Assembly (NCBI GenBank): GCA_021793315.1
Contig: JAJYSZ010000016.1
Coordinates: 1 to 47,193, forward strand
Length of the DNA: 47,193 nt
Source of the DNA: Bacillota bacterium
Lineage (GTDB): Bacteria > Bacillota > Sulfobacillia > JAJZYS01 > JAJYTV01
Direction of reading: 5' to 3'
The first letter of the stretch is position 1, and every line of letters begins with the position of its first letter. This document shows positions 17,647 through 36,419 of this stretch, in pieces. Under the pieces are notes generated by a model that saw nothing but the letters and a program-made list of their open reading frames with translations, had not been told where the DNA came from and did no database searches. Made by a program: the position numbers and the translations under genes.

Positions 17647-18861
17647 ATGCTGATCGGCTCGCTGCTCTCGGACGGTCACCCCTGGCGCGCCGAGGCGGCA
17701 GCGATCGGGACCCTCGTCTGGCAGGGCTCCGTCGACACTCTGACGGCCGCGGCTCGTGCGCCTGTCGACCTGCTCCTGGTCGACGCCGGGGATCTCGCCG
17801 TGCAGGATCTTCCGGATCTGAACGCATACCGCATCGCCCGGCCCGCCACGCGCATCCTCGTCGCGCTACCGCCGGACGCTCAGCCGGGAGATCCCCTGTT
17901 CGAGGCCCTGGCGCGGATGGGTGTCTACGACATGACCTCGGAAACTGCACTCGCGGCCGCGATCGCCAACACCGCATCCTACGCGGACGCCGCCCGCTGG
18001 CTGCCTCCTCCCGAGGCGAGCCAGCCCGCGCCCCGTGGATCCTGGCTCTTTGCGCAGGTCGCGGCCTCCCGCCGCAGCGCTTGGCGCCGCGATATCGCGG
18101 CCGGGCCGGAGCCAACTCCGCATGATGCCGACGATGCCCCCGCAGCCCCGGCTCGCGGCCGCCGGCCCGTGCTCGTCGCCGGCCGCAGCATCGCGATCCT
18201 GGCAGCCCACGGAGGCGCCGGCGCCACGACCGTCACCGCGCTGCTGGCCCAGGTTTTCGCTGCACAGGGATTGCACGTCGGCATACTCGAGGCCGATCCC
18301 GGTGGGGGACAGCTCCTGCGGCTCTTCGGGCGACCCCTGCTCGAGGCGGGGGTCGAGTCCGCCCAGTCGCCCGCTGAAGCCCTTGTCGCCTGCGGACCGC
18401 GCATCTCGGTCCTGGCGCGAGGCTTCGGTGCGGGCGCGGCCCTCGGCACACCGGACGTCGAACGCTCGCTTTCCTATTTGAGAGGGATCAGCGACGTGAC
18501 GCTCGTGGACGCCGGCAGGGGTACCGTCGGCCTCGGGATCGCCGGGCCCTACGCCGATCTGCTCGTGCTGGTCGCGGAACCGACGCCCACCGGGGCCGCC
18601 GCAGCGGTGCGGATCGCAAACCTCCTCAAGACGACGAGGGTGCCGCAGCTCGCCGGAGCCGTGCTCAATCGGCGCCCGACGAAGCGCCTTACGGCGGCCG
18701 ACCTCGGCGACGCGCTCGGCTGCCGCATCCTGGCGGACATCCCCGCGCTGCCCGCCGAGTGCTTCCATCTCGCAGACTCTGGACGCGCCGGCAAGGAGCT
18801 CCTTGGGTTTCTCGGGCCGGTTGCCGACATGCTGCTCACCCAAAGGAGGGCTGCACTTTGA
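17647..18861 (+). CDS. CpaE/TadZ-like protein with a degenerate P-loop
   Basis: A 404-residue protein from ATG 17647. Residues 1-130 look like a receiver-like domain (VDLLLVDAGDLAVQDLPDLN, TRILVALPPDA), as in CpaE/TadZ. A MinD/ParA fold follows from about 180. The deviant Walker A of ParA (KGGxGKT) is replaced by AAHGGAGATTVTA near residue 188, lacking both lysines, so ATP hydrolysis is unlikely. TadZ proteins place the pilus machine at a cell site. It overlaps the next gene (TTGA, 18858-18861), which is a paralogue with an intact P-loop. The pair may form a heterodimer. Confidence 0.72.
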   Translation: MLIGSLLSDGHPWRAEAAAIGTLVWQGSVDTLTAAARAPVDLLLVDAGDLAVQDLPDLNAYRIARPATRILVALPPDAQPGDPLFEALARMGVYDMTSETALAAAIANTASYADAARWLPPPEASQPAPRGSWLFAQVAASRRSAWRRDIAAGPEPTPHDADDAPAAPARGRRPVLVAGRSIAILAAHGGAGATTVTALLAQVFAAQGLHVGILEADPGGGQLLRLFGRPLLEAGVESAQSPAEALVACGPRISVLARGFGAGAALGTPDVERSLSYLRGISDVTLVDAGRGTVGLGIAGPYADLLVLVAEPTPTGAAAAVRIANLLKTTRVPQLAGAVLNRRPTKRLTAADLGDALGCRILADIPALPAECFHLADSGRAGKELLGFLGPVADMLLTQRRAAL

Positions 18862-20066
18862 TCGAATGGGCCGACACCAACACCGGAATCATCGCCCTCT
18901 GCCTGCCGGAGCCGCACGGCTCGCGGCTCGCCGCACTCCTGCGCGGGCGCATGGGTCTGGAGGTCGTGGCACAGGAGAGCTTCCAACCTGTCGCGGGGGC
19001 GTCCGTCTATATCGTCACCCCGGAAGACGCCCCGCGCATTCTGCCGCACAAGGGGGGTGCCGACGTCGCGATCGTCTTCGGCACCCGCGGCCCGAGCGAC
19101 GCCGACCGCCTACGCTACCCGGGGGCCGTGTTTCTCACCGGCGCGCTGCCCGGCACCGTCACCGACTGGCTTGAGAGTCGTGGCGTGCCGGTGGAGTCTC
19201 TGGACCTCACATGGGCCGAGACGCTGCACCAACCTGCCGCCCACCAGTCCGGCGCGAAATCCGTTGCCGTGTACTCTTCCGGCGGCGGGGTGGGGAAGTC
19301 CACCGTCTCCGTGTACCTCGCCGCGGTTGCGGCGGCCGAGCGCGTCCCGACGGGACTCGTCGAGTTGGACGAGGACCGCCGCGGCATCCTCACGTACTTC
19401 GACCGCAAGCCGAAGAACGGACTCGATACGCTGCAGCCGACGGACTGGGAGGACCCTGCGCGCTTCGCCGCAGCCATGGCGGCCACCACGGTGGCGGTCG
19501 GGGCACGGCTCACAGTCGTGCCGATGGTCGGCACAAAGTACGGCATGCAGTACCAGACGTCCATGGACACGGAAGACCACCTCCAGCACCTGTTCGACTG
19601 GGCGGGCAAGGAGTTCGCGCTCACGGTCTACGACCTCCCGGCGCGCGTGCGCGACCACGTGGTGCTCCAGACCCTGCAGAACGCCAGCCACATCATCCTT
19701 GTGGTGGAGCCGACCGAAATCATGGTCGACTCCACCATGAGCTATCTCAACCTGATCCACTCGATCAAGGGCGTCGGGCCGCAAATGGTTGGCCGGATGA
19801 GCCTCCTCGTCAACAAGGTTCCCCGCCAGCGCCGCGCCGCGATCCCCTCTCGCCAGATGGCGGACGCCCTCGGCGTGCCCCTCCTCGGCGAGGTTCCGCT
19901 CGACCCCGAACGATACATGACGGCCATCAACCAACACCGGATCCAGCTCGACCCAAACTGGAAGGCGATCTACGCGGCCTTGGACCTTCCGCACGCGGCA
20001 GGGTCGGCAAAGACCGGCACGGACAGGGAGAAGGTCGGTCTCTTCCGGCGTCTCCTCGGCAGATAG
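18858..20066 (+). CDS. CpaE/TadZ-like MinD-family ATPase
   Basis: A 402-residue protein with TTG start at 18858 after AAAGGAGGG. An N-terminal receiver-like domain lies at about 1-115. The MinD domain follows with a canonical deviant Walker A, SSGGGVGKSTVS, near residue 140, and VELDEDRRGILTYF after it. HIILVVEPTEIMVDST and RMSLLVNKVPRQRR are typical MinD/CpaE motifs. It resembles CpaE proteins that recruit the Tad/Flp pilus apparatus. Position directly before cpaF and after the degenerate paralogue supports this role over chromosome or plasmid partition, though ParA-like partnering with the ParB-like protein is an alternative. Confidence 0.78.
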   Translation: MIEWADTNTGIIALCLPEPHGSRLAALLRGRMGLEVVAQESFQPVAGASVYIVTPEDAPRILPHKGGADVAIVFGTRGPSDADRLRYPGAVFLTGALPGTVTDWLESRGVPVESLDLTWAETLHQPAAHQSGAKSVAVYSSGGGVGKSTVSVYLAAVAAAERVPTGLVELDEDRRGILTYFDRKPKNGLDTLQPTDWEDPARFAAAMAATTVAVGARLTVVPMVGTKYGMQYQTSMDTEDHLQHLFDWAGKEFALTVYDLPARVRDHVVLQTLQNASHIILVVEPTEIMVDSTMSYLNLIHSIKGVGPQMVGRMSLLVNKVPRQRRAAIPSRQMADALGVPLLGEVPLDPERYMTAINQHRIQLDPNWKAIYAALDLPHAAGSAKTGTDREKVGLFRRLLGR

Positions 20067-20089
20067 ACAGCACCGTCAGGAGGTCTACC

Positions 20090-21604
20090 ATGGAGTCCCC
20101 AGCAGAGATGCGTCTCTACCAGCAGACCCGTCGCGCTGATCTCGCCAGTCTCTCGGTCATTGCGGCGCGCTTGACGGAAAACGGATCCGCACGGCAGCCC
20201 GAAGGTACGGAGGAGCCTCTTCAGATCGGGCTTCGCCAGGTGCGCGAAGCCCTCGCGCGCGAATACGCCGACCTTCTGCGCGATCGCGTGGCGCACCGCG
20301 AGGCCATCCTCACCGCGATCCGCGACAAGCTGCAGGCGACAGACCTCACCTCCGACGAACGCCATCTCGCCTACGAACTGCTCAGCACGGACTACTTCGG
20401 CTTCGGGCGGCTCGACCGTTACATGGCGGACCCGAACGTCACCGAGATCATTGTCGACAGCCCAAGCCATGTGGACGTCGAGGTGGGTGGCCAGCTCCAT
20501 CGGGTGCCGGTCTCTTGGCGTTCGGATGAGGACTTGCGCGAGTACATCAAGGGGCTGATCCGCGACACGGGCCGCCCGCTCGACACGGCGCACCCCATCG
20601 TTGACTGCGAGGTGGGCGGGGCGCGCGTCAACGCGACGTCGCCCCCGGTCTCCAAGCACTTCACGCTCAACATCCGCAAGTCGACGGAGCAGACCCGCCG
20701 CTACACCGCGGAGGAGTACATCCGCTCGGGCGCGATCAACCTCGTCGGCATGCGGCTGCTGCTGTCCTGTGCGCGCGGCGCGGCGACGATCCTTGCGTGC
20801 GGCGCCACGGGCTCGGGTAAGACGACGCTCGCGCGCATCCTGATCGAGATGGGCGCACGGGACGACCTGCGTTGGATTGTGCTCGAGGACGTACGCGAGA
20901 CGGAAGCACATGTGGAGCGCTTCGTCTCGCTGCAGACGGTCGAGCGCAAGGAGAACCCGATCACCGTCGACGACCTCTTCGCAACCACAAAGCGCAAGCG
21001 GCCGGATCGCATCGCCGTCGGTGAGGTGCGCTCCGGCGATCACGCGGCCCCGTTCATCCTCTCTACCCTTGCCGGCCACGAGGGGCCGATTACGACGCTG
21101 CACGCCGGCAACGAGTACGATGCGGTCTTCAATTTCATCTTCTTCCTGAAGATGTCTGGTCTGCCTGTAGCTGAAGACTTCCTCGAGCGCATGCTGCACC
21201 GCCAGCTCAACATCCTCGTCTTCGTGCGGCGCTTCCGCGACGGCCGACGCCGCGTCACCCGCATCGTCGAGGTGCTGCCGATGGGACAAGGCAACGACGG
21301 CTTTCAGGTGCTGATGGAATGGGACAAGGCGACGGATCAGCTCGTGTGGCGCAACCCCATCTCAAACGAACTCGCATACCGCCTTGATCTCAACGAGACA
21401 GTCGTACCGACGCCGGACGACGACGTGACCTGGGACAACTACCTCGACCTCGACACCTTCGCGGAAACGCCACCCGTGGAAGAGGTGGAGAACATCCCGG
21501 CGCCCATCGACACTGCATCCGTGGCGCGTGACGAGGACCAGGCACCGGCGGACAAGCCCACCGCCCGCCGTGGCTACAGGCTACGGCGGAGGTTTGCGCC
21601 GTGA
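20090..21604 (+). CDS. cpaF: CpaF/TadA-family secretion ATPase
   Basis: A 504-residue protein. ATG 20090 follows AGGAGG. A much longer frame upstream is antisense-like and lacks a site. The N-terminal domain is followed by FGRLDRYMADPNVTEIIVDS, typical of CpaF. Walker A is GATGSGKTT (about 239-247), the Walker B region is DRIAVGEVRSG (about 306), and the His box is TTLHAG (about 335). It powers Tad pilus assembly with TadB and TadC, whose genes follow without a gap. VirB11 is a relative, but Gram-positive T4SS lack VirB11 and the neighbours here are Tad genes. The acidic C-terminal tail ends in a basic patch. Confidence 0.9.
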   Translation: MESPAEMRLYQQTRRADLASLSVIAARLTENGSARQPEGTEEPLQIGLRQVREALAREYADLLRDRVAHREAILTAIRDKLQATDLTSDERHLAYELLSTDYFGFGRLDRYMADPNVTEIIVDSPSHVDVEVGGQLHRVPVSWRSDEDLREYIKGLIRDTGRPLDTAHPIVDCEVGGARVNATSPPVSKHFTLNIRKSTEQTRRYTAEEYIRSGAINLVGMRLLLSCARGAATILACGATGSGKTTLARILIEMGARDDLRWIVLEDVRETEAHVERFVSLQTVERKENPITVDDLFATTKRKRPDRIAVGEVRSGDHAAPFILSTLAGHEGPITTLHAGNEYDAVFNFIFFLKMSGLPVAEDFLERMLHRQLNILVFVRRFRDGRRRVTRIVEVLPMGQGNDGFQVLMEWDKATDQLVWRNPISNELAYRLDLNETVVPTPDDDVTWDNYLDLDTFAETPPVEEVENIPAPIDTASVARDEDQAPADKPTARRGYRLRRRFAP

Positions 21605-22482
21605 TCGCATTCGTTGCCGCGCTCGCACTCGGCGTCGCAGCATACCTCTGGGCAACGCGCAACACCCTCCCGTCGCGTCTGGAGCGCGCGAAGCCGCGCC
21701 CGCAGGCGGCTTCGGTTCAGAGAACCGCCTCAAAGGGATGGTCCGTCACAGAGCGTAGCTGCAAGGTGCTCGGGATGCCCCTGGCCCGCCTGCGTATCTA
21801 CTCGTGGCTGGCGGCCTTAGTGGTTGGCATGCTCTGGTGGCTGGCCGTGCAGAACTTGCCAGCGGGCGTCTTCATGGGCGCCATCGGCTTCCAGCTTCCC
21901 GGCTTCTGGATCGAGCTGCGTGCGGCGAAGGCGCTCGACCAGCTCCAGCGCCAGATGTCCGTATTTGTAGGGACGGTCAACGATGCGCTGCACGGTCGCG
22001 GAGCCACGGCGGAAGATGCCATGCTCGCCGCGGCCCGCACTGTCCACGGCGGCCCCATGGCCCCCATCGCCCAGACGTACCTGCAGCGCACCGAGGCGGG
22101 CGTCGCCTTCGAGGACCGCGTGCGGCTGCTCGGACGCGAGGTAGACCTGCCGAGCTTCCACTTCTTCACGGACCTCATGCAGCTTCGTGAACGCACCGGC
22201 GTTGAGCGCATGGCCAAAGCGTTCGACCTCATGGACGAGAAGTTCCGCGACGACGAGCGCATGCAGGCATCCGTCCGTGGCGAGCTCAGCATTTACATGG
22301 GGATGCTGCTCGGGTCGCTCGCGGTCAACGTCGTCGTGTTTCCCGTAACTCGCCTGACCAGCTCCGGCTGGCCGCTCATCGCAGCGCACCTCGGCATCCT
22401 CATCAGTCTCTCCGCCCTTGGCTCCGTCGTCGTGTTCTCGGGCGTGCGCCGCTTCGCCAGGGCGCGCGTCATGACCGAATAG
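21601..22482 (+). CDS. tadB: TadB-like pilus platform protein (T2SSF domain)
   Basis: A 293-residue protein with GTG start at 21601, overlapping the cpaF stop. Membrane segments lie at residues 1-18, about 60-100 and two near the C-terminus (MGMLLGSLAVNVVVFPVT and GILISLSALGSVVVFSGV). The cytoplasmic T2SSF-type domain between them contains FVGTVNDALHGRGATAEDAM and LGREVDLPSFHFFTDLMQLR. This is the usual TadB arrangement. With TadC it forms the inner-membrane platform moved by CpaF. Confidence 0.8.
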   Translation: MIAFVAALALGVAAYLWATRNTLPSRLERAKPRPQAASVQRTASKGWSVTERSCKVLGMPLARLRIYSWLAALVVGMLWWLAVQNLPAGVFMGAIGFQLPGFWIELRAAKALDQLQRQMSVFVGTVNDALHGRGATAEDAMLAAARTVHGGPMAPIAQTYLQRTEAGVAFEDRVRLLGREVDLPSFHFFTDLMQLRERTGVERMAKAFDLMDEKFRDDERMQASVRGELSIYMGMLLGSLAVNVVVFPVTRLTSSGWPLIAAHLGILISLSALGSVVVFSGVRRFARARVMTE

Positions 22483-22493
22483 GAGGTGGTGCC

Positions 22494-23315
22494 CTGCTTG
22501 CCGTCATCGCGGCCGTCGCCCTGGCGGTGGCCGTTTATCTGTTCGTGGGGATCTCGCCAGCAGAAAGCCTGCGGGCGGAAATCGCATCTGGACTGCGGCC
22601 CAAGGCTCCATTAAAGCAGAGACTGCGCGAGCGTCTCGTCGCCCTGGCGACGGGGCGCTTCGTCTCGCAGACCGTGCGCCAGCAGCTCGATGCCACGGGC
22701 CAGACGCTCGCGGCGTACCTGCAGCGCGCTCTTCTCTACATCATCGGCGGAGCCGTTCTTGTCTGGCTCGACGCGGGGCCGATCGGTGCGCCGGTCGGCG
22801 CTCTACTCGGACTGGGTATTGCACGGCTGCTGCTCTGGCGGCGCTACAATTCCTGGCTTCAGGAGGTGGTGGGAGAAGCGGGAGATCTCGTTACGTACCT
22901 GCAGGTCCGGCTCCATGCCGGCAGCACCGTCGAGCAGGCGGTCGCGGCAGTCGCCCCGCAGCTCCGCGGGCCGCTGCGCGTGGAGTGGGAGCGGATGCTC
23001 GCGCAGCGCCGCAGCGGCGCGTCGATGCGCGACGCGATCCTACGGCTCTCTGATCGCGTCTACGACCGCGACTTCGGCGCGGTGATGAGCCAGCTCGTCG
23101 TCTACGACCGCGAATCCGTGCCGGAGGAACCCTTCGGCAACCTCGCCGGCCACCTCGCCCGCATCCGGCAACTGCGGCGGGAATACCTCGTCCACAGGTC
23201 GACGTCCTCCATCACCGTCCTCACGGGCATTGCGGTGTTCATGGCCATCGCGTCGGCGGTGGCGCCGACGCTCTACCTGCTCTGGGTCCAGTCCATCGGA
23301 CAGATGCAACTCTGA
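22494..23315 (+). CDS. tadC: TadC-like pilus platform protein (T2SSF domain)
   Basis: About 273 residues if translated from CTG 22494. The next in-frame standard start is GTG 22527. I favour CTG 22494 because AGGAGG (22481-22486) is 7 nt before it and the added residues (LLAVIAAVALAVAV) complete an N-terminal membrane helix. The T2SSF domain has LVTYLQVRLHAGSTVEQAVA and RRSGASMRDAILRLSDRVYD, with terminal helices TVLTGIAVFMAIASAV and TLYLLWVQ. It follows TadB by 11 nt. Confidence 0.78.
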   Translation: MLAVIAAVALAVAVYLFVGISPAESLRAEIASGLRPKAPLKQRLRERLVALATGRFVSQTVRQQLDATGQTLAAYLQRALLYIIGGAVLVWLDAGPIGAPVGALLGLGIARLLLWRRYNSWLQEVVGEAGDLVTYLQVRLHAGSTVEQAVAAVAPQLRGPLRVEWERMLAQRRSGASMRDAILRLSDRVYDRDFGAVMSQLVVYDRESVPEEPFGNLAGHLARIRQLRREYLVHRSTSSITVLTGIAVFMAIASAVAPTLYLLWVQSIGQMQL

Positions 23316-23337
23316 AAGCGCGAAAGGGGTTTCAGAA

Positions 23338-23484
23338 TTGGGCAGCAACGATCAGTACATCACGGCAGGAATCATCCTGCTCGTCGCCATCGGCATCGGT
23401 GTAGCCGTCCACACCTTCCTTCCGGGAACGGTGTCCACGTTCATCACCACTACGGTCCAGAACATCCTCTCCCAGTTCCCTTGA
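23338..23484 (+). CDS. small Flp-pilin-like protein
   Basis: A 48-residue protein with TTG start at 23338 behind GAAAGGGG (23322-23329). It has a short polar start (GSNDQY), one hydrophobic helix (ITAGIILLVAIGIGVAVHTF), then PGTVSTFITTTVQNIL, which resembles the C-terminal part of Flp pilins. There is no leader peptide and no G/xxxxEY processing site. The position right after tadC fits the major pilin, which would then need no peptidase. It could instead be an accessory membrane peptide. Confidence 0.55.
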   Translation: MGSNDQYITAGIILLVAIGIGVAVHTFLPGTVSTFITTTVQNILSQFP

Positions 23485-23515
23485 TCGGTACGGACGCGAT
23501 CGCCACGAAGAAGGG

Positions 23516-23547
23516 GAAGGCCGGGATGCCCATGCACCCCGGCCTTC
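23516..23547 (+). terminator. hairpin after the small pilin-like gene
   Basis: GAAGGCCGGG (23516-23525) and CCCGGCCTTC (23538-23547) form a perfect 10-bp stem. There is no T tract. It may stabilise the pilin mRNA or partly stop transcription before the large adhesin gene, a common way of making much pilin and little adhesin. Confidence 0.5.
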
Positions 23548-23574
23548 GTCACGACAACGGTTGGGAGGGATCGC

Positions 23575-23631
23575 ATGGCATACGGCATAGTTCGCTTCCG
23601 CCCTCCGTTTGAGAGCATTCCTCGGGGCTGA
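23575..23631 (+). CDS. possible 18-residue leader peptide
   Basis: ATG 23575 lies 5 nt behind GGGAGGG and opens an 18-codon frame (MAYGIVRFRPPFESIPRG) ending in TGA 23629-23631, 37 nt before the adhesin start. The strong ribosome site is the only evidence. It could be an upstream ORF that tunes expression of the adhesin, or chance. Confidence 0.3.
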   Translation: MAYGIVRFRPPFESIPRG

Positions 23632-23668
23632 GTACCCATTCCCCGTAGATCCATTAGGAGGTGAATCC

Positions 23669-27856: not shown

Positions 27857-28486
27857 GTGCTGGCTATTGTGCTCGTGATCCTTGCTCTCGTCGCCGGCGT
27901 CATGACGGTTGTTCGCATTCGCTCCGGCAAGGGTGCCGTCATATTCGCCGTGTCTGCGGCCGTCCTGCTTCTCGGAGGCGTCCTGCTCCTGGTCTCGGCC
28001 CGGACACAACCGACATCCGCCGCAAGTCCGGGCGTTGTCGCGAGCGGCATTTCCGCTCCCGTGAACTACCACATGATCTCTGTGCTGGCTCCTTCGGGTC
28101 AGGAGATGCTGCTCAACGCCCAGAACTATCCCGTCCTCTTCGTCAGCCAAAATGACAGCATCAAGAGCATTGCGACCGCCTACGCCGCCATCCACAAAGC
28201 CAAGCGACCACTCATCCTCGTCGCGACGTACTTCCATACCGCGAACGCCAAGGCAGCGGCCAAGGAGGTCACTGCCTACCTGGCGGGCCAGGCCCCCGGC
28301 TTCCCCTGGGCTCTGCAGACCGGCCCCGCAGCCGAGTACGTTCAGTCCACCCCGACGCTCGTCTACTATGACCGGGCCGGGCGGCTGCATACGGCCACAG
28401 GCTCGGCTATCCTGTCCGACCTAAAGGCGGCCGTCCTGCTGCCGAGCAACCCGGCCGCCACCAGGACAGGAGGAACGAAGAAGTGA
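27857..28486 (+). CDS. membrane-anchored thioredoxin-fold-like protein without CxxC
   Basis: A 209-residue protein from GTG 27857 with GAGGAGG upstream. Two N-terminal membrane helices (LAIVLVILALVAGVMTVV, AVIFAVSAAVLLLGGVLLLV) are followed by an external domain. RPLILVATYFHTANAKAAAK and STPTLVYYDRAGRLHTATG have the strand-helix and cis-Pro loop pattern of thioredoxins, but the domain has no cysteines, so it is not a redox enzyme. It could be a folding aid or structural part of the surface machine. The stop overlaps the cpaB-like start. The fold assignment is from pattern only. Confidence 0.5.
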   Translation: MLAIVLVILALVAGVMTVVRIRSGKGAVIFAVSAAVLLLGGVLLLVSARTQPTSAASPGVVASGISAPVNYHMISVLAPSGQEMLLNAQNYPVLFVSQNDSIKSIATAYAAIHKAKRPLILVATYFHTANAKAAAKEVTAYLAGQAPGFPWALQTGPAAEYVQSTPTLVYYDRAGRLHTATGSAILSDLKAAVLLPSNPAATRTGGTKK

Positions 28487-29247
28487 GCAGAAAGGCTCGC
28501 CAGCGCGGCATCTTCCTCGCCCTCCTGGTGGGAATCGCGACGCTGGTCTTCGCGTGGGCGGGCGGCTCTGCCCGCGCAGGACGCACAACACAGATCGTCG
28601 AGGCGACGCAGAACCTGCAAGCAGGGGAAATCCTCTCGGTCTCGGACCTGACGACCGCGACAGTCTACAACCAGGGCACGAGCGGATACGTAACCGGCAT
28701 ACCATCCGTACAGGGCAAGCCGCTGCTCTACGACGTCGTGAAGGGCCAACCGATCATGAAGTCCGACATCTCGGGCACGGTGGTCAGGCAGGGTCTCGGG
28801 CAGGGGCAGGTCGGCGTCTTCTTGCCGGTGAACCTCGCCTCGTCGGCTGAAGTCGTTCCGGGCGACTATGTGGACGTCGTGTGGACCGGCTCTGCCAGCA
28901 CTGCCGCGAGCCAGGGAAGCGCGGGCTTTACGCCGGGGACTACGATCCTCACGCATGCCAAGGTCATCTCGGTGGTCACGAGCAATGGGGCACCCGTAGC
29001 CGCCACCACTGCCAGCGGATCGACAGTCGGTTCCTACGCGGCCAGTGTGCCGTCCGCAGTCGAACTGGCCGTGCCGCAGTTCCAGGCGCCGGACCTTGCT
29101 GAAGCCGCCGCCTCGGGCACGCTCTGGCTTGTGGTCGATCCGTGGGGGGTGTCCAGCACGGCACCTGCCTACATCCCACCGTCCGTTACAGTCCCGGCCA
29201 CCAACTCGCCTTCAGGCACGTCCAAGGGCACAACCACAAAGCCGTAA
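28483..29247 (+). CDS. cpaB: CpaB/RcpC-like SAF-domain pilus protein
   Basis: A 254-residue protein with GTG 28483 overlapping the upstream stop. An N-terminal membrane helix or signal (GIFLALLVGIATLVFAWAGG) precedes a SAF domain: QIVEATQNLQAGEILSVSDL, then a part with KGQPIMKSDIS and VFLPVNLASSAEVVPGDYVD. This is the Tad-pilus CpaB/RcpC pattern. The tail is Ser/Thr/Pro-rich. In monoderms CpaB may bind the cell wall or pilus base, since there is no outer membrane. It confirms the Tad identity of the locus. Confidence 0.78.
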   Translation: MSRKARQRGIFLALLVGIATLVFAWAGGSARAGRTTQIVEATQNLQAGEILSVSDLTTATVYNQGTSGYVTGIPSVQGKPLLYDVVKGQPIMKSDISGTVVRQGLGQGQVGVFLPVNLASSAEVVPGDYVDVVWTGSASTAASQGSAGFTPGTTILTHAKVISVVTSNGAPVAATTASGSTVGSYAASVPSAVELAVPQFQAPDLAEAAASGTLWLVVDPWGVSSTAPAYIPPSVTVPATNSPSGTSKGTTTKP

Positions 29248-29254
29248 GAGCCGC

Positions 29255-29295
29255 ACCGACCCGGCCTTTCCGTCCTGGACGGGGGCCGGGTTGGT
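29255..29295 (+). terminator. terminator-like hairpin after cpaB
   Basis: ACCGACCCGGCC (29255-29266) pairs with GGCCGGGTTGGT (29284-29295), 12 bp with one G-U pair. No strong T run follows. It separates cpaB from the glycosyltransferase-like gene. Confidence 0.5.
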
Positions 29296-29341
29296 CATGT
29301 CCGGCCCATTGCCGAAGCACGGGATCGAGGGAGGTGTTCTG

Positions 29342-30742
29342 TTGGCAGGCAATACCCGCTTCGTCGCTATCTTGACGGCAGTGGCTGCCCTGATCATGCT
29401 CGCCGCGACCTCGGCGCACGGCTTCGCGGGCGACCTGCTCATGGACATCCAGAACGGCCGCTGGATTCTTGCGCACGGCGTCATCCCCCTGCACGACTTC
29501 ACGACGCAGGCCATGTACGGGCGCCCCTGGTCGGACAGCGAGTGGCTCTACTGCGTCTATGCCGCGTGGCTCTACAGCCACTTCGGACGCATGGGCGTCT
29601 TCTGGGGGCTCTTGCCGTTGACCGCGATGATTGCCCTCTTCATTTCCTTGTTCGCGGTGCGCGCTGGACGTACTTGGGGTGTTCTCCTTGCGATCCTCGC
29701 GGCATCCGCCATGACGATCGTGATGAACCCAAGACCACAACTCGTCTCCTACGCCCTCTTCGCTTTCGGCCTCTGGGCGGTGATGCAATACCGCAACGCA
29801 CAGAGCTGGCCCATCTGGGTTTTCGTCGCCACGGTGCTGCTCTGGGCCAACGCCCATGCCTCGGCGGTGCTGGGCCCGGCGCTGCTTCTGTCGGAACTCT
29901 TGTTGGGGGCAAGCGAGCGCAGGCGCGGTCTCGTGGTGCCGACTCTCGTTGCGATCGTGTTTGTCTTTGCGCATCCCGGAGGTCTTCATTCGGGCAGCAG
30001 TTTCCTCGCGCAAATCTTCTCCCCAGGGATCCTTAGTACGATCCAAGAGTGGATGTCGCCGAACTTCCAGACGTACACAGGGCTATTGATTTTGCCGTGG
30101 ATCATCCTGTCGCTCTCGTTCCTGGTCCCGGCTGCCTACCGGGCACGAGACTGGGCCGGCCTCTCCTGGGCGCTCCTCGGCCCGTTGGCGGCGCTCTTCG
30201 CGGTGCGCTTCGCGCCCTACATGATGCTCGGCTCCCTGGCGCTCGCGGGAGCCTACTGGCCCGAGCGGCTTCGCCGCATGGACGCGCCGAAGATGGCGAC
30301 GGTGGCAGCCAGCGCCTTCGCTCTGTTTCTCACGGCCTCGACGGCGATCGCGGCGGCCGAGGGGACTTTGTTCCCGGTGCGCGAGCCGGTGGCGGCCATC
30401 GCGTACCTCAAGGCGCATCACGCCAAGGACGTGCTGGCATTCTATCCCTTCGGCGACGCCTTGGAGTTCTATGACGTGAGGCCATTCGTGGACGGCAAGG
30501 CGGAACTCTGGACCGGGCGGCCCTGGTGGCCCGCCTACATCGCGGCGCAGACGGAACAGGGCGGCATCGCCCGGTTCGCGGCGACGTGGGATCCGCGGGT
30601 TCGCTGGATCCTCTGGCCGGTGAACGGCTACGGCGGTTCGCAGCCGCTGCGTGCCACCGGCTGGAAGCTCGTCTACGTCAATCACCACGGCAGCGGCGGG
30701 ATCGACGCCGGGGTGTGGGAGCGGGCGGCAACAGTGACTTAG
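29342..30742 (+). CDS. GT-C-fold glycosyltransferase-like membrane protein
   Basis: A 466-residue protein. TTG 29342 follows AGGGAGGT. ATG 29297 is in frame but overlaps the terminator-like region and lacks a site. About ten membrane helices are visible. The first external loop, GRWILAHGVIPLHDFTTQAM then GRPWSDSEWLY, matches GT-C enzymes of the PMT/ArnT type, in which acidic residues in this loop are catalytic. A C-terminal soluble domain follows (FYPFGDALEFYDVRPFVDGK). It could glycosylate pilus or adhesin proteins from a lipid-linked donor on the outer face. Substrate unknown. Confidence 0.62.
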   Translation: MAGNTRFVAILTAVAALIMLAATSAHGFAGDLLMDIQNGRWILAHGVIPLHDFTTQAMYGRPWSDSEWLYCVYAAWLYSHFGRMGVFWGLLPLTAMIALFISLFAVRAGRTWGVLLAILAASAMTIVMNPRPQLVSYALFAFGLWAVMQYRNAQSWPIWVFVATVLLWANAHASAVLGPALLLSELLLGASERRRGLVVPTLVAIVFVFAHPGGLHSGSSFLAQIFSPGILSTIQEWMSPNFQTYTGLLILPWIILSLSFLVPAAYRARDWAGLSWALLGPLAALFAVRFAPYMMLGSLALAGAYWPERLRRMDAPKMATVAASAFALFLTASTAIAAAEGTLFPVREPVAAIAYLKAHHAKDVLAFYPFGDALEFYDVRPFVDGKAELWTGRPWWPAYIAAQTEQGGIARFAATWDPRVRWILWPVNGYGGSQPLRATGWKLVYVNHHGSGGIDAGVWERAATVT

Positions 30743-30784
30743 GGCTTACGTTAGTCAGCCCCTCGGAGAAAGGAACTGGTCACG

Positions 30785-31714
30785 ATGCCGGAAAGGATCC
30801 CTTCTGGCGACTATGACGTCTTCTTCACCTTGGAGCACCTCTGGTTTTTGGGCCTTGGCCTGGGGCTATGGCTGGCCATGGGACAGATGCTCCCGCAGTT
30901 CCTCTATCCGACCGGCGTCATCGGCCTTCGCGTCAACGCTACGATTATGTATCGCGATCTGAATATCTTGTTGCTCCCGCTGCTGGGCTACGTCGGCACC
31001 TTCTTCGTCGCCAACATGCTCTTGGCGCTCACCTTGCAAACGCTACTTCGACAAGTACAAAAGAGACGCCACCAGCCACACACCACTCGCGGCCAGCCCC
31101 AACCCACCGCCCCCCCACAAGATCCCGCACAGCGCTTTCCGTTTCCGCTCGCCTTCCTGACCGAGGGTTGGGATGATCAGATCGACGAATCTGAAACCGT
31201 CGCTCCGCAACCCTTTCAGCTTGTACGGTGCCAAGGCGCTGAACCCCACAAAGCTGTCCGCAATGCCGAAGGCCAGACCGAACCCATCCAGGCTTCGGGC
31301 GATAGCCACGTAGACAGCCAAGGCGGCCAGATTGGCCAGCACGCCTCCACCGACGACGAGAGGGCTTCGATGGGCTGGCCCTCGGGTTTCGCCACCGCCC
31401 CCGACCCAAAGTCCCAGAAAGACGTCGCACCTGCCGATGCGGCAGCACTTCCAACTTGGGCGGCCGACCCGAACGCTTGTTGCCGGCAAACCGACGCAAC
31501 GCCGAGCCAGGACATGGCCCGCCTCGTGGAGAGCGATGCTCAGCCAATAGCCTGTGTAGACCAGAACCCCGAACAGCAGCAGCCGCATCCTTCCCAACCT
31601 CTCCGCGACCGCATCCTCGACTTTGGTGTACGCTTTGCCATCTTTGCCGCGACGACCTCCATCAGCATGGTCACCGCACGCCTGGTCGCCGTCCTTACCG
31701 TCCCAGCTCGTTGA
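30785..31714 (+). CDS. membrane protein with unreliable C-terminal half
   Basis: The ATG 30785 frame (GAAAGGA upstream) gives 309 residues. The first ~90 look genuine, with two hydrophobic segments (LWFLGLGLGLWLAMGQML, LLPLLGYVGTFFVANMLLAL). From about 31046 the frame runs antisense to the M50 protease gene, and its product turns polar and rich in Gln and Pro. It is probably a short membrane protein whose stop was lost, or a gene cut by arrival of the protease gene. No family is recognised. Confidence 0.35.
   Translation: MPERIPSGDYDVFFTLEHLWFLGLGLGLWLAMGQMLPQFLYPTGVIGLRVNATIMYRDLNILLLPLLGYVGTFFVANMLLALTLQTLLRQVQKRRHQPHTTRGQPQPTAPPQDPAQRFPFPLAFLTEGWDDQIDESETVAPQPFQLVRCQGAEPHKAVRNAEGQTEPIQASGDSHVDSQGGQIGQHASTDDERASMGWPSGFATAPDPKSQKDVAPADAAALPTWAADPNACCRQTDATPSQDMARLVESDAQPIACVDQNPEQQQPHPSQPLRDRILDFGVRFAIFAATTSISMVTARLVAVLTVPAR
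31043..31588 (-). CDS. M50 (site-2 protease-like) membrane metalloprotease
   Basis: A 181-residue protein read on the minus strand from ATG 31588, with GGAGAGG upstream. SIALHEAGHVLARR contains the HExxH zinc motif (21-25) in the first helix. GGGVLANLAALAVYVAIA carries the Asn-containing second motif region, and RFVDLIIPTLGQEGERKRK leads into a last helix. This is the minimal core of site-2 proteases, which cut transmembrane anti-sigma factors or signal peptides (Eep in enterococcal conjugation is a relative). It is the only minus-strand gene in the Tad region and lies entirely opposite the plus-strand frame 30785-31714. A signalling role is inferred. Confidence 0.7.
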   Translation of the reverse strand: MRLLLFGVLVYTGYWLSIALHEAGHVLARRCVGLPATSVRVGRPSWKCCRIGRCDVFLGLWVGGGGETRGPAHRSPLVVGGGVLANLAALAVYVAIARSLDGFGLAFGIADSFVGFSALAPYKLKGLRSDGFRFVDLIIPTLGQEGERKRKALCGILWGGGGLGLAASGVWLVASLLYLSK

Positions 31715-32056
31715 CTGCCCGTGATCGCTAGAGAGGGAGGCAAGGGGCGCTGCGCTCGGCTGCGCAGCCCTTACCCTTTGCGCCGAGGCGTCGCCCATGT
31801 AGTACCATGTACCTGGCAACAGGCGGAAAGGCATGACGCCTCGCAGATCCTCCGGGGAAGCCGTAATGCCGCACCGAGCTGCGGGCCTGGGTCCAATCCG
31901 GAAACGATACACGACACACACAAGAGAATAGGAGACCAATGTCGAAGGATTGTGGAAGTGGATGTGACCAATGCGGTATCTATTGCGTTGGAATAGCGGT
32001 ATGATACTGGTAGAGGGTTTGCCGCTTTTCCACGATACAGAACGGAGATGAAGCCG
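31589..32056. other. intergenic region with a hairpin at 31742-31772
   Basis: This 468-bp stretch upstream of both the minus-strand protease and the plus-strand surface gene should hold both promoters. The plus-strand frame from 30785 runs into it as far as 31714. A strong fold is visible at 31742-31772 (GCTGCGC at 31749-31755 with GCGCAGC at 31762-31768). A TATGAT at 32000-32005 could be a -10 for the gene at 32057, though no good -35 is present. No further gene is seen. Confidence 0.4.
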
Positions 32057-32923
32057 ATGGTGCGCAAGCTTCTGCTCGCCGGGATCCTGGTCCTCGCCAT
32101 GGGGGCGCCTGCGGCCTTCGCCGCTACGAGCCCGTTGGCCGGCTACACACTCGTGCAGTGGGTCTTCATGGGGCCGCCGCAGTTTCCGCAACCTACCATA
32201 GAATTCGTCTACGACAATGGTGCTGTGCAAGAGCCCTTCGGGTTGCCCATCTATCACGAAGCCGGTACCCCGGGCGGATCGGCCCAGAGCCAGTGGTTTG
32301 CGGCGTACAGCAAGATCGACCAGGGCTGGGGCGGCTGGGACAACCCCGCAGCGCTGCTCTGGTATGCGAAGAACGTAAACGCCACATGGATCGGGCAAAC
32401 AATGCTCGCCCCAGGTGTCATCTACACTTCACACTTAGTGCAGCAGATGAACGCCGCGCACTTCGCTCCCTCGATGGTCGGCGGCTGGAACCCGCCCGGC
32501 ATTACGAGCGCGGCATCCACATCGCCCTCGACGCCTCCTGCCACGTCGAGCTCCAGCGGCGGCACCACGGAGCCCTCCGGCGGCACGACACCGCCCGCGC
32601 CGTCCGGCGGCAACGGCAGCGTGAAGCCCTCCGGGACCACCGCGACGACTCCGTCAGCGCCCGCGCCCACGTCCACCACACCAAGCGCGCCCGCCGCAGG
32701 CTCTACATCCGCGACGCCGACCCAACCGATCGAACCGCAGGCTGTGCTGCAGGGCACACCCTCCGCGATCTACGCCGCGCGCTCGCGCAACGACGAGACC
32801 GCGCTTGGACAGATCCCCAAGCACAAGGCCGGTACGCCGTGGGGCGCCGTCGCGGCGGCCGCCGCGGTTGTCCTCCTGGCAGGCGGGACCGTCGTCCTCC
32901 TGCGGCGCAGACGCCTCGCCTAG
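32057..32923 (+). CDS. secreted surface protein with Pro/Ser/Thr stalk and C-terminal membrane anchor
   Basis: A 288-residue protein. ATG 32057 (VRKLLLAGILVLAMGAPAAF) is preferred over ATG 32048 because GGAG lies 9 nt before it. A signal peptide ends near AFA-ATS. The globular part has WFAAYSKIDQGWGGWDNPAA. Residues about 150-230 are a Ser/Thr/Pro/Gly-rich stalk. The end has one membrane helix (AVAAAAAVVLLAGGTVVLL) and RRRRLA, as in wall-spanning anchored proteins. The family is not recognised. It may be a target of the nearby glycosyltransferase-like protein, since the stalk is rich in Ser and Thr. Confidence 0.65.
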   Translation: MVRKLLLAGILVLAMGAPAAFAATSPLAGYTLVQWVFMGPPQFPQPTIEFVYDNGAVQEPFGLPIYHEAGTPGGSAQSQWFAAYSKIDQGWGGWDNPAALLWYAKNVNATWIGQTMLAPGVIYTSHLVQQMNAAHFAPSMVGGWNPPGITSAASTSPSTPPATSSSSGGTTEPSGGTTPPAPSGGNGSVKPSGTTATTPSAPAPTSTTPSAPAAGSTSATPTQPIEPQAVLQGTPSAIYAARSRNDETALGQIPKHKAGTPWGAVAAAAAVVLLAGGTVVLLRRRRLA

Positions 32924-32937
32924 CCTTCTCGATCCGT

Positions 32938-32974
32938 ACGGGAGCCGCCCATCCGGGCGGCTCCCGTCATTTTC
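32938..32974 (+). terminator. strong intrinsic terminator
   Basis: ACGGGAGCCGCCC (32938-32950), loop ATCC and GGGCGGCTCCCGT (32955-32967) form a perfect 13-bp stem followed by CATTTTC. It ends the surface-protein gene upstream and isolates the next gene. Confidence 0.85.
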
Positions 32975-32991
32975 CTGGAAGGAGGAAGACT

Positions 32992-35559
32992 ATGCGCAAG
33001 AGACTCTGGCATGCCCTGCTGGCGATCGTGGCCATCGCCTCGCTGCTCGCCGTCTTCGCCTCCGCCGTGCACGCGGCGGATATGCCCACCTACGACAATT
33101 CGAGCAGCCGCCTGCGCTTCATCCAGTCCCACAGCAGCTCGCAGCTCTACATGGACCTGCCGCTCTATCTCGAACTGCCTGCGGGGCAGCAATCCTTCTC
33201 GACGCCGACCGTCGTCGGCGACACGCTCTACCAGTACACCTGGGATTCCTCGGGTCAGGGCCATCTCTACGCGCTGCAACTCCCGGGCACGGACTACAGC
33301 CAGGTCTTCCAGCAGGCAGGCAGCACCCCCTACGTCATCAACTCGGCCAGCTACGCACAGCCGCCGATCACGTTCAACGCAGGCTTCACGCCGGGGAGGC
33401 TCAACGCGGCGGCGGGGCAGGACTCGCTCTCGACCGGGCCGTACCAGGGTGGTGCGCCCGATGGCGCACAGTACCAGGCCATCGCCGTCGGCAAGTACCT
33501 CTACACCTGGCCCGCCGGAAGCTACCCGCAGGGAGGAACGCCGCCAACGGGCCAAGTTATTATCGCTAACCCCAGCAACACGAACTACCAGGTCGACGAG
33601 AACCCGCTGATCACGCCGCCTGTGACTATATCCGGGCTCGGCGCCTCCGGCAGTCCGACCACCTGGCAGTCGCCGGTCGCGGTCGTCGGCTCCTGGGACG
33701 GTGGGCTGATCGCCTGGCCGACGTACGTGCCCTCGGGATATACGACGAACCAGGTGAGGTACCTAACATCCTACGACTATACGCACTCCGTCGCCGCCCT
33801 CACATCCGACCCCACCTGGATCGGCTCCTGCTCCGTCGGGTCCGCGTGTGTCGCCTTCGGCGTCGCGGGCGCGCACCCGCGCGTCGTCCTTCTCGACGTC
33901 ACGACGGGGAACTACAAGGTCATCGGCACTGGCCTGATCGGCGCGCAGGTGGCGGACACGGTGGTCTACGACAACACGGGGCCCCAGGCGGGCAACCCCC
34001 TCCTGATCGTCCAGGACGAGTACGGCAAGATCTACTCCTTCAACCTGTCCGGCAGCCTGCTCGCTACCTACCCGAGCGGGAGCCAGAACCCGTCCTGGAT
34101 CAATCGCAACAGCCTCATTCTCGGCAAGGACATGTCGGTTCTGACCGACCTGGCCGGCCAGACGCTCTTTGCCATCGGCGGCGGCGGCGCGATGTTGGGC
34201 GCCTTCGATCCCGCGACCCTGTCACCCATGGACGCTCCTACCGCAGGCTTCAGCCCCGGCGTCGATTCACCAACCTCCATGGTCAACGCGAACGGCAACG
34301 CCACGGTCGTCCTCTCGAACAGCAATGGCGACCTCTATCTCTTCGGAGCCGGTTCCCTCTTTACGGGAGCCCTAGGGAACACCTACAACCAGACGATCGC
34401 GACGCCTTCCGGCACCGCCTACGTCGGCTACGGGCCGGACGAGGGGCCGAAACACTGGCTCGTCGGTTGGACGAACGGCGACCCGCACAGCCGGCCGGCG
34501 ATCGTGGCCTTCGTGCCGCAGCCGTACATCGTGGGCGCCTCGGTGAACCCCAGCGATGTGCAGAGCGGCTCGAGCCTTATCATCACTGGCAGGCCGTACC
34601 CGGCCGGCGTGACCTTCGACAACGGCTACAACGGCAACGGTCCCAACGGCAACGCACCCCTGGAAGCGCAGATCGAGAACGCACAGGGGCAGCCCGTCAC
34701 GGGCATGATCCCGATGACCCACGAGGCTCCGGACCAGTGGACGGTGAACTGGACGCCGCCTGCGAACACGACCGGTTCGCCGGTCGAGTACCAGGTCGTC
34801 GTGTACGCCTGGAGCGAGATCGGCCAGACGGCGCAGTCGAGCCCCGTGTCCTTCACGGTGGAAGCCGCGGCACCGCCCACGCAGCAGCCCCAAGGATCAA
34901 GCGGCGCACTGAGCATGACTTGTGGTTACGGCCACGGTGGTCTGCCGATCGTGGTCTCGCACACCTGCACGATCCCGTCGGCTCTGCAGGGTAACAGCAC
35001 AAGCTGGTTCGCCTACAACTACAACTACGGCGCGAAGTTCGGCGACACGCTCGACTTCAATCTCGCGATCCCGCAGCCGAAACTGCCAAACCTTCGGGTT
35101 GTCGCGCTGACGGGGGTGCAGCTCACGGCCTCGATCCAGCACCAGGTCGGCTACCCAAACCTGCCGGGCTACCAGGGATACAATCCGGGCAACGCGGCGC
35201 TCTACAATTACTATCCGCAGACCACCGCCATGACGCAGATTGGGCAACTCACGGCGCAGGCAAACTTCGTCGAATCCTGGTCCGGCTACCCGCCGCCGCA
35301 GCCGCTCGGGACCACCGTCTGGACAGGCAACATGACGGCGGACTGGAAGGCGATCGTCTCCTACTCCTACCAGCAACGGGTTCCACCATACCAGATCTGT
35401 GTGCCGGCGAACCCGAAGCCCGGTCAACAGCCCGTCTGCACGACGGTCTACAACTACCGGACAGAGACAGGTCAGTTCACGGAGACAGGCAACGCCTCGG
35501 CACCGCTCGCGATCAACGGCAGCGACTACTACACCATCTCGACGCCGGCGGGTTACTGA
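32992..35559 (+). CDS. large secreted beta-propeller-like surface protein
   Basis: An 855-residue protein from ATG 32992 behind GGAAGGAGGAAG. The signal peptide (HALLAIVAIASLLAVFASA) ends near HAA. Residues about 50-500 contain repeated strand patterns with short Gly/Asp turns (VVGDTLYQYTWDSSGQGHLY, AVVGSWDGGLIAWPT, LLIVQDEYGKIYSFN, NSNGDLYLFGAGSL), as in PQQ/WD-like propellers. An Ig-like region follows (about 515-640), then a Tyr/Asn-rich domain with QHQVGYPNLPGYQGYN. There is no membrane anchor. It may bind to the pilus or envelope or act as an adhesin. The exact family is unknown. Confidence 0.62.
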   Translation: MRKRLWHALLAIVAIASLLAVFASAVHAADMPTYDNSSSRLRFIQSHSSSQLYMDLPLYLELPAGQQSFSTPTVVGDTLYQYTWDSSGQGHLYALQLPGTDYSQVFQQAGSTPYVINSASYAQPPITFNAGFTPGRLNAAAGQDSLSTGPYQGGAPDGAQYQAIAVGKYLYTWPAGSYPQGGTPPTGQVIIANPSNTNYQVDENPLITPPVTISGLGASGSPTTWQSPVAVVGSWDGGLIAWPTYVPSGYTTNQVRYLTSYDYTHSVAALTSDPTWIGSCSVGSACVAFGVAGAHPRVVLLDVTTGNYKVIGTGLIGAQVADTVVYDNTGPQAGNPLLIVQDEYGKIYSFNLSGSLLATYPSGSQNPSWINRNSLILGKDMSVLTDLAGQTLFAIGGGGAMLGAFDPATLSPMDAPTAGFSPGVDSPTSMVNANGNATVVLSNSNGDLYLFGAGSLFTGALGNTYNQTIATPSGTAYVGYGPDEGPKHWLVGWTNGDPHSRPAIVAFVPQPYIVGASVNPSDVQSGSSLIITGRPYPAGVTFDNGYNGNGPNGNAPLEAQIENAQGQPVTGMIPMTHEAPDQWTVNWTPPANTTGSPVEYQVVVYAWSEIGQTAQSSPVSFTVEAAAPPTQQPQGSSGALSMTCGYGHGGLPIVVSHTCTIPSALQGNSTSWFAYNYNYGAKFGDTLDFNLAIPQPKLPNLRVVALTGVQLTASIQHQVGYPNLPGYQGYNPGNAALYNYYPQTTAMTQIGQLTAQANFVESWSGYPPPQPLGTTVWTGNMTADWKAIVSYSYQQRVPPYQICVPANPKPGQQPVCTTVYNYRTETGQFTETGNASAPLAINGSDYYTISTPAGY

Positions 35560-35562
35560 CGC

Positions 35563-35610
35563 CGGCGGCGGGGAAGGAGGCAGGCCCGGCGGCATCCTTC
35601 CCCGCCGCCG
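35563..35610 (+). terminator. 16-bp perfect hairpin after the propeller gene
   Basis: CGGCGGCGGGGAAGGA (35563-35578) and TCCTTCCCCGCCGCCG (35595-35610) are perfectly complementary with a 16-nt loop, starting 3 nt after the stop codon. There is no T tract. It is probably a terminator or 3'-end stabiliser. It includes an AGGAGG sequence, but no start codon lies at a suitable distance. Confidence 0.65.
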
Positions 35611-35784
35611 GGCACCGACATGCTCAGCCGCTTCATCCTCTTGCAGACCCGCGCCGTGGCTCGAGTGTGGCTGGAGATCCGAGGTCCAGAGGACCCGCCG
35701 GGTATGATGACGTCGCAGTGCTTGTTAGGCAAGCAGCCGCGCTTTCCCTCGTCGTAATGGATACCTGCGATGGAGGTGGCTACC

Positions 35785-35892
35785 GTGTACCACTTGTTGA
35801 CCGCCGCGCTATTCGGAGTCGCCATTGTCGCTGCCAGCGGACTTGTCGCGTTGATAGGCAACGCCCTTCTGGCTGTGCTGCACAGGCTCTAA
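35785..35892 (+). CDS. 35-residue membrane peptide
   Basis: GTG 35785 lies 8 nt after GGAGG (35772-35776). The peptide is almost wholly hydrophobic (HLLTAALFGVAIVAASGLVA, LIGNALLAVLHRL), a single membrane helix. It lies just upstream of the TadE-like gene, 23 nt apart and co-directional. It could be a pilus accessory peptide. Confidence 0.42.
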   Translation: MYHLLTAALFGVAIVAASGLVALIGNALLAVLHRL

Positions 35893-35915
35893 CTAACTTC
35901 CGAGGCGGTGACGAC

Positions 35916-36419
35916 ATGCGAAGGTTCCTCAAGTCCGAACGCGGCGACGCCGGGATGTACTTCCTCGCCGCCATCATGGTCTGGCTCACGCTGACGCTCT
36001 CAGTGGCCTACGCGGTGATCCACACGGTCGAGATCGGCCGCGCGCAGATGAGCGCGGACCTCCAGATCGCCATGCGCCAGGCGGCGAGCCAACTCAACAC
36101 CGTTGGCGCGGTCCAGGGGACTCAAGGCGTCACGCCCACCGAGGCGTCGGCACTGGTGGCCTCGGACCTCGCACAGATCGCACCCGCCACATGGCACTAC
36201 AGCATCACCGGCGTCCAGGTCTTTGACCAGTCGCAGGCAGGCGCGCCCGCACCTTCCGGCGTACCGGGAGGTGTTATTCCAGGCGCGGGTATTTATGCCG
36301 CAGTCGACCTGATATGGCCGCTTCCTGTCCCCCTGGTTAACCACGTAACCATCAACATACCGGAGTGGATGTCCGCGAACGTCTTCGTGCAACCCACGCA
36401 GACCTGGAACGGCGGCTAG
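35916..36419 (+). CDS. TadE/TadG-like minor pseudopilin
   Basis: A 167-residue protein from ATG 35916 with GAGGCGG upstream. RRFLKSERGDAGMYFLAAIM then a hydrophobic helix is the TadE-type start (basic residues, Gly cleavage site, helix), but Tyr replaces the usual Glu at +5. The following helix (SADLQIAMRQAASQL) matches the amphipathic part of pseudopilins. The rest is a small beta-rich domain. It would help initiate or prime the Tad pilus. It is the last recognisable gene of the pilus region. Confidence 0.68.
   Translation: MRRFLKSERGDAGMYFLAAIMVWLTLTLSVAYAVIHTVEIGRAQMSADLQIAMRQAASQLNTVGAVQGTQGVTPTEASALVASDLAQIAPATWHYSITGVQVFDQSQAGAPAPSGVPGGVIPGAGIYAAVDLIWPLPVPLVNHVTINIPEWMSANVFVQPTQTWNGG

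What the first reader, a model, noticed from the sequence alone, without database searches (positions are those of the whole stretch)
17647..36419. A full Tad/Flp pilus assembly locus carried by a conjugative element
CpaE-like proteins, CpaF, TadB, TadC, a pilin-like peptide, CpaB and two TadE-like proteins lie between the T4SS and the replication module, all in one orientation apart from a protease gene. Tad pili bind surfaces and other cells. On an ICE they could act as a mating-pair-forming device for a monoderm host, which otherwise lacks long conjugative pili. About 40% of the element is devoted to it, which argues for a transfer-related benefit.
Basis: partly seen in the sequence, partly recalled or inferred. 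Interest (0 to 1): 0.88.

Follow-up and report, generated by a model that had tools for sequence, protein, structure and literature searches.

The report
Conjugative element carrying a Tad pilus
A complete mobile DNA element from a Bacillota bacterium carries, directly behind its DNA-transfer machine, genes for an adhesive Tad-type pilus; the same two machines recur together in many related elements, in swapped combinations, so the pilus probably helps the element catch recipient cells, though nobody has tested this.

Summary
A MobL/VirD4/VirB4 conjugation module (6.5-17.1 kb) is followed on the same strand by a Tad module (17.6-36.4 kb): two CpaE-like ATPases, CpaF, TadB, TadC, a small pilin-like peptide, a TadE-adhesin fusion, CpaB and a second TadE-like protein. 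It is not a "full" Tad set: no secretin was found, no prepilin peptidase is on the element, and the pilin-like peptide has no visible leader.

The contig holds a whole ICE. Copies of AAGACACAGC at 108 and 47112 interrupt a GDT1-type gene, and the joined flanks match an intact site 189/189 bp in a relative.

Among 24 related T4SS loci, 9 have CpaF within about 35 kb (1.55 expected), always co-oriented; the window and Sulfobacillus plasmids pY0017/pL15 do too. These CpaFs lie outside the chromosomal CpaF clade. One T4SS family pairs with at least four Tad lineages, and the window's Tad subtype also sits behind a different T4SS. About half of related elements lack Tad, so it is an exchangeable accessory, not an obligate part.

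The first "CpaE" is largely a T4SS-family gene, present in Tad-less relatives. Best reading: accessory mating-pair pilus, with function untested. T4SS+Tad plasmids were already described.

The parts
108..47121 (.). Whole integrative and conjugative element; 10-bp core AAGACACAGC at 108-117 (left) and 47112-47121 (right)
   Evidence: Joined flanks restore a GDT1-like frame and match G007:C14 189/189 bp
6524..7957 (+). MobL relaxase
   Evidence: PF18555 6e-22
8006..9085 (+). ParM-like actin
   Evidence: PF21522 6e-23, PF17989 1e-21
9625..11622 (+). VirD4-type coupling protein
   Evidence: PF02534 4e-54
11657..11899 (+). VirB2-like T4SS pilin
   Evidence: PF18895 1.4e-4, below cut-off; conserved at this place in the family
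11958..12836 (+). TrbL (VirB6-like)
   Evidence: PF19597 3e-27
13080..13388 (+). Small membrane protein, VirB3/PrgI-like by position and size (inference); homologues in most relatives
   Evidence: no Pfam match
13385..15830 (+). Conserved 217-aa ORF, probably a split-off VirB4 N-terminus (inference), plus VirB4 ATPase (from about 13974/14022)
   Evidence: PF19044 2e-17; family
16086..17147 (+). SLT transglycosylase (VirB1-like)
   Evidence: PF01464 9e-7
17647..18861 (+). CpaE1: receiver-like N-domain (T4SS-family gene) plus MinD/CpaE-like ATPase
18858..20066 (+). CpaE2: MinD/CpaE-like ATPase
   Evidence: PF10609 2e-9; TIGR03815 3e-13, below cut-off
20090..21604 (+). CpaF/TadA assembly ATPase
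   Evidence: PF00437 1e-18; CpaF structures 6.5e-87
21601..22482 (+). TadB
   Evidence: PF00482 0.005; 43-44% to Sulfobacillus TadB
22527..23315 (+). TadC
   Evidence: PF00482 4e-8
23338..23484 (+). 48-aa pilin-like peptide (TTG start), no prepilin leader
   Evidence: 39-40% to peptides at the same place in G065; no Pfam Flp match
23669..27760 (+). TadE-adhesin fusion, 1363 aa, Big_1 and CarboxypepD_reg repeats
27857..28486 (+). Membrane-anchored protein, also in G030:C72 Tad locus
   Evidence: 30%, 1e-6; no Pfam family
28483..29247 (+). CpaB/RcpC
   Evidence: PF16976 4e-10; TIGR03177 2e-15
29297..30742 (+). Polytopic membrane protein, no family
31043..31588 (-). Putative M50-like protease (HExxH)
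   Evidence: PF02163 0.11 only; motif by eye
32048..32923 (+). Exported protein with C-terminal TM
   Evidence: sequence; no family
32992..35559 (+). Large exported protein, no family
   Evidence: 41% homologue in G001:C22
35916..36419 (+). Second TadE-like protein (leader plus TM only)
   Evidence: sequence; no profile match
36694..38016 (+). HTH_36 replication-type protein
   Evidence: PF13730 4e-12
40555..41154 (+). Resolvase
   Evidence: PF00239 6e-35
45496..47133 (+). Large serine recombinase (integrase)
   Evidence: PF00239, PF07508, PF13408

Best explanation
The window is an integrative and conjugative element of about 47.0 kb, inserted by a large serine recombinase into a GDT1-like gene. 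It carries an exchangeable Tad-pilus module next to a Gram-positive-type T4SS. The module makes a thin Tad-like filament: CpaF, TadB and TadC assemble it, CpaE/TadZ-like proteins place it, and CpaB is a wall-side part. It presents a TadE-adhesin fusion that grips potential recipients, or the surface on which they meet, so that the T4SS can form a channel. Shown: gene content, element ends, recurrent co-oriented pairing with T4SSs, exchange of Tad types between T4SSs, purifying selection on Tad genes in relatives. Inferred: that a filament is made, that the adhesin sits on it, and that it raises transfer. The T4SS can also exist without it, since many relatives lack it.
For: Att sites and empty site. 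Tad follows the T4SS on the same strand, with no terminator-like site on + between 9105 and 22509. CpaF on the VirB4 contig in 9 of 24 scored relatives, 1.55 expected, all co-oriented; 5 directly downstream, 0.07 expected; also pY0017/pL15. Order kept in T. wiegelii and P. roseus at about 20% CpaF identity. Linked CpaFs outside the chromosomal clade, in several lineages. Same Tad subtype behind a different T4SS in G065:C131. TadE-adhesin fusion conserved in G065 and G030:C72. dN/dS 0.05-0.22. Precedent: TP114 type IV pilus with adhesive PilV needed in broth, not on solid support (PMC9045228, 73).
Against: About half of related elements have no Tad on the contig, and Tad presence on the VirB4 tree is no more clustered than shuffled labels. 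No prepilin peptidase on the element (42), pilin-like peptide without leader, so a working filament is not assured. No transfer, expression or microscopy data. The chance model treats loci as independent.
Confidence: 0.58

Rival explanations
1. The Tad module is cargo that benefits the host cell: an adhesive or biofilm pilus that helps carriers persist on surfaces, with any effect on transfer incidental.
For: Tad pili are adhesive in other bacteria, and C. acnes tad plasmids are discussed as colonisation factors (PMC5696575). Close T4SS relatives lack Tad.
Against: Recurrent placement beside T4SS genes, co-oriented, with different Tad lineages and with a second T4SS type; ordinary cargo should not keep that place. 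Hosts often have chromosomal Tad-type CpaF already.
Confidence: 0.27
2. The CpaF/TadB/TadC module exports proteins (T2SS-like) or takes up DNA rather than making a mating pilus; the adhesin and exported proteins are its substrates.
For: The pY0017 locus was described as a putative T2SS (PMC6803676). An Flp locus is required for transformation in Micrococcus luteus (PMC4322843 title/abstract; discussed in PMC5696575). The window pilin-like peptide has no leader.
Against: TadE-type minor pilin domain and CpaB are pilus parts; other linked loci have prepilin-like small proteins with a leader and pY0017 a prepilin peptidase.
Confidence: 0.12
3. The T4SS and Tad genes are side by side only by chance or assembly error.
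For: The contig flanks match another genus of the family better than the genome it is filed under, so binning is doubtful. The genome has further CpaF loci.
Against: The Tad genes lie between the two att sites; the window CpaF is outside the chromosomal clade (39); linkage recurs far above the chance expectation, including in complete plasmids.
Confidence: 0.03

Closest known systems
Sulfobacillus thermotolerans plasmids pY0017 and pL15 and the Kr1 plasmid-like region (Deane & Rawlings 2011, cited in PMC6803676)
   Same: Same T4SS family (VirB4 54-55%), MobL, ParM-like protein, SLT, and CpaE/CpaF/TadB/TadC on one conjugative backbone.
   Different: Circular plasmids; Tad upstream of the T4SS, different Tad lineage (CpaF 27%), own A24 prepilin peptidase, pilin with leader, no TadE-adhesin fusion seen.
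Cutibacterium acnes linear tad plasmids (PMC5696575)
   Same: Conjugation genes (VirB4-like, TcpC-like) next to a tad locus in a Gram-positive; TadE-type pilin detected at the surface and appendages seen.
   Different: Actinobacterial linear plasmid; sequence relation to this element was not tested here; the authors call the link to conjugation unclear.
R64/TP114 thin pili (IncI plasmids; PMC9045228)
   Same: Works like: a T4SS element with a second pilus whose minor pilin is an adhesin, needed for mating in broth.
   Different: A type IVb PilS/PilV system of diderms with a shufflon; not a Tad (type IVc) system, homology not tested here.
Chromosomal Tad/Flp loci of the same Bacillota (e.g. G000:C8, L034)
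   Same: CpaF, TadC and related assembly genes.
   Different: Their CpaFs form a separate clade with no T4SS-linked member.

Membership tests
Tad/Flp (type IVc) pilus locus | CpaF/TadA ATPase with TadB and TadC | tested here: met
   TadB below the Pfam cut-off but met by homology and position
Tad/Flp (type IVc) pilus locus | CpaE/TadZ and CpaB/RcpC | tested here: met
Tad/Flp (type IVc) pilus locus | TadE-type minor pilin | tested here: met
   N-terminus of the adhesin gene
Tad/Flp (type IVc) pilus locus | Flp prepilin with leader and G-xxxx-E-Y motif | tested here: inconclusive
   48-aa peptide at the right place, no leader, Q-Y instead of E-Y, no Pfam match
Tad/Flp (type IVc) pilus locus | TadV/CpaA prepilin peptidase in the locus | tested here: not met
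   PF01478 in own genome only on C19 and C89; it may act in trans, so a complete locus is not claimed
Tad/Flp (type IVc) pilus locus | RcpA/CpaC secretin (diderm systems) | tested here: not met
   no secretin match in ORFs scanned; not expected in a monoderm
Integrative and conjugative element | relaxase, coupling protein and T4SS ATPase | tested here: met
Integrative and conjugative element | integrase and direct-repeat ends with empty site | tested here: met
Integrative and conjugative element | excision and transfer | not testable with these tools
   needs experiment
Conjugation-associated adhesive pilus (R64/TP114-like role) | pilus and its adhesin raise transfer in liquid | not testable with these tools
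   analogy only (PMC9045228)

The most novel reading that the evidence does not exclude
Bacillota conjugative elements have, as a general strategy, a two-machine mating apparatus: a T4SS whose own TadZ/CpaE-like ATPase marks the assembly site, with an interchangeable Tad pilus bearing a TadE-adhesin that sets recipient choice. This would be a missing mating-pair pilus of Gram-positive conjugation, here with a leaderless pilin subtype that needs no element-encoded prepilin peptidase.
Probability: 0.3. Interest if true: 0.85.

Novelty: new variant of a known kind. Interest (0 to 1): 0.62.

Why it matters
How Gram-positive conjugative elements form mating pairs is described as largely elusive because they appear to lack pili (PMC11730352). 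A T4SS family that repeatedly carries Tad pili, in swapped combinations and next to closely related elements without them, gives natural with/without pairs that make the question testable, for example in culturable Sulfobacillus, Thermoanaerobacter, Moorella or Paenibacillus hosts.

Tried and rejected
Contig circularity: no overlap between the ends; the ends turned out to be att sites. VirB11 instead of CpaF: rejected. CpaE1 as proof of a pilus: rejected, because its N-domain is in Tad-less T4SS loci. Tad tied to T4SS lineage: not supported, 8 changes against 9.1-9.2 shuffled. One common Tad for all elements: not supported, several lineages, though long branches make deep joins unsure. ORF 30785-31714 (+) judged non-coding, since it overlaps the protease on the other strand. 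Hairpin after the pilin gene: stronger than shuffles in the window and L108, weaker in L027, absent in L133, so not claimed as conserved. Pfam gave no Flp or TadE match for the small proteins. The primary paper on pY0017/pL15 is not held, so it is cited through PMC6803676. Plasmid search with CpaF hit its 5000-record limit with weak matches and told little.

Full report
WHAT IS THERE. The window is one whole 47,193-bp contig (C2) of an unnamed 3.5-Mb genome. Profile searches give, in order on the + strand: ArdC, ParB, a PD-(D/E)XK nuclease, MobL relaxase, ParM-like actin, VirD4 coupling protein, a VirB2-like T4SS pilin, TrbL, a small VirB3-like protein (by position), VirB4 with a preceding conserved ORF, and an SLT transglycosylase. 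Then come CpaE1, CpaE2, CpaF, TadB, TadC, a 48-aa pilin-like peptide, a large adhesin, CpaB and further membrane or exported proteins. Last are an HTH_36 replication-type protein, an HD protein, SpoVG, a resolvase and a large serine recombinase.

THE ELEMENT IS A COMPLETE ICE. AAGACACAGC occurs only at 108 and 47112 in the window. Joining the flanks at these copies restores an open frame of a GDT1/UPF0016-type transporter (family named from my own knowledge of the sequence, not by a profile search). The joined 189 bp match an intact site in G007, a genome of the same family but another genus, at 189/189 bp. The recombinase gene runs into the right end. The genome the contig is filed under has its own intact copy of that gene, only about 82% identical, so the contig may belong to a G007-like organism rather than to G000.

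TAD GENES IN DETAIL. CpaF is CpaF rather than VirB11 (6.5e-87 against 1.8e-54). A TadE profile built only from pY0017, P. roseus, DX2.bin40, T. wiegelii and Caloramator loci finds one place in the window, the N-terminus of the adhesin gene (3.1e-7). The adhesin is therefore a minor-pilin fusion with Big_1 and CarboxypepD_reg repeats; the same fusion occurs in G065 and G030:C72. The small pilin-like peptide has homologues at the same place but no prepilin leader, and no prepilin peptidase lies on the element, whereas pY0017 has one. "Full" is therefore not shown; the two A24 enzymes elsewhere in the genome could serve the TadE proteins (inference).

CPAE1 BELONGS TO THE T4SS. Its N-terminal ~118 residues match a protein near VirB4, nearly always downstream of it, in 22 of the 31 loci that the genome scan returned, including loci without Tad. 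The predicted fold is receiver-like plus MinD-like, and the two-domain structure 3fkq is among the matches, at low TM-score. So this T4SS family carries its own TadZ/CpaE-like ATPase; the presence of "CpaE" alone does not show a pilus.

PAIRING WITH T4SS ELSEWHERE. The VirB4 alignment found 31 loci in named genomes, and a plasmid search added pY0017 and pL15. Whole-genome searches with CpaF and VirB4 alignments place a CpaF on the same contig within about 35 kb, same strand, in 9 of 24 scored loci: LSA3.bin48 C72, Thermosediminibacter, a Clostridia MAG, M. mulderi C21, T. wiegelii, Desulfoscipio, Caloramator, P. roseus and a Thermosediminibacteraceae MAG. The expectation from genome-wide CpaF density is 1.55 (tail about 7e-6), and for directly downstream 0.07 against 5 seen. 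This simple model treats the loci as independent. In T. wiegelii and P. roseus the order slt - cpaE1 - cpaB - cpaE2 - cpaF - tadB - tadC - small protein - tadE is kept although CpaF identity to the window is only about 20% (gene names there are by position, size and match, not each by profile).

MIX AND MATCH. In the CpaF tree, 18 unlinked CpaFs, including one of the host's own, form a clade without any T4SS-linked member; linked ones fall in several other lineages (some long branches). In the VirB4 tree, Tad presence changes 8 times, about as often as for shuffled labels. In G065:C131 the window's Tad subtype sits behind a different T4SS, with a VirB4-like ATPase (4e-11) and a T4SS pilin match (5e-5). 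Selection on Tad genes of close pairs is purifying (dN/dS 0.05-0.22). Modules that are exchanged yet keep being found together and under constraint suggest a working partnership, but do not prove it.

INTERPRETATION. Most likely the Tad module is an accessory mating-pair device. In TP114, a different type IV pilus with an adhesive minor pilin is required for transfer in broth but not on solid support (PMC9045228). For C. acnes tad plasmids the functional link is called unclear (PMC5696575), and for Gram-positives generally mating-pair formation is called largely elusive (PMC11730352). The main rival is adhesion for the host's benefit; the many Tad-less relatives keep it alive.

NOVELTY. T4SS plus CpaF/TadB/TadC on one conjugative backbone was already described for pY0017, pL15 and Kr1 (PMC6803676). 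Not found described in the papers searched: a bounded ICE with this pairing, the TadE-adhesin fusion, the swapped pairings, the T4SS-resident CpaE-like protein and the leaderless pilin subtype. Limits: "no Tad" means none on the same contig; many contigs are short; there are no transcript, filament or transfer data; the monoderm state of the host is inferred.

Noticed in passing
1-107 and 47122-47193: The chromosomal flanks are 100% identical to G007 (same family, other genus) and only about 82% to the intact copy in G000 (C78): the contig may be binned into the wrong genome.
   Followed up: partly
G009:C65:3566-4597 and G002:C349:9383-15890: Partial copies of the GDT1-like gene start (residues 1-26) lie 1-6 kb from an intact copy, as if other elements had used the same integration site; it may be a hotspot.
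   Followed up: no
L035 (G000:C121) and L022 (G000:C189): The genome holds a second T4SS of the same family (VirB4 67%) on a short contig, and another short contig with SLT followed by a pY0017-like CpaF; they may be two pieces of a second Tad-bearing element.
   Followed up: partly
L033 (G000:C173) 7247-10274; L114; L115: A distant VirB4-like ATPase next to a CpaF/VirB11-like ATPase; a similar VirB4-like match appears in most same-genus genomes. Another, unexamined VirB4+CpaF pairing.
   Followed up: no
13385-15830: VirB4 seems split: a conserved 217-aa ORF precedes a 600-aa ATPase in nearly all relatives.
   Followed up: no
32992-35559: Large exported protein without family; a 41% homologue stands beside the Tad-less T4SS of G001:C22 in opposite orientation, so it may belong to the element rather than to the Tad locus.
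   Followed up: no
L051 14175-16268: In a Syntrophomonadaceae element the CpaE1-type N-domain is part of a 698-aa protein with a GGDEF-like stretch (by eye), hinting at a c-di-GMP link.
   Followed up: no
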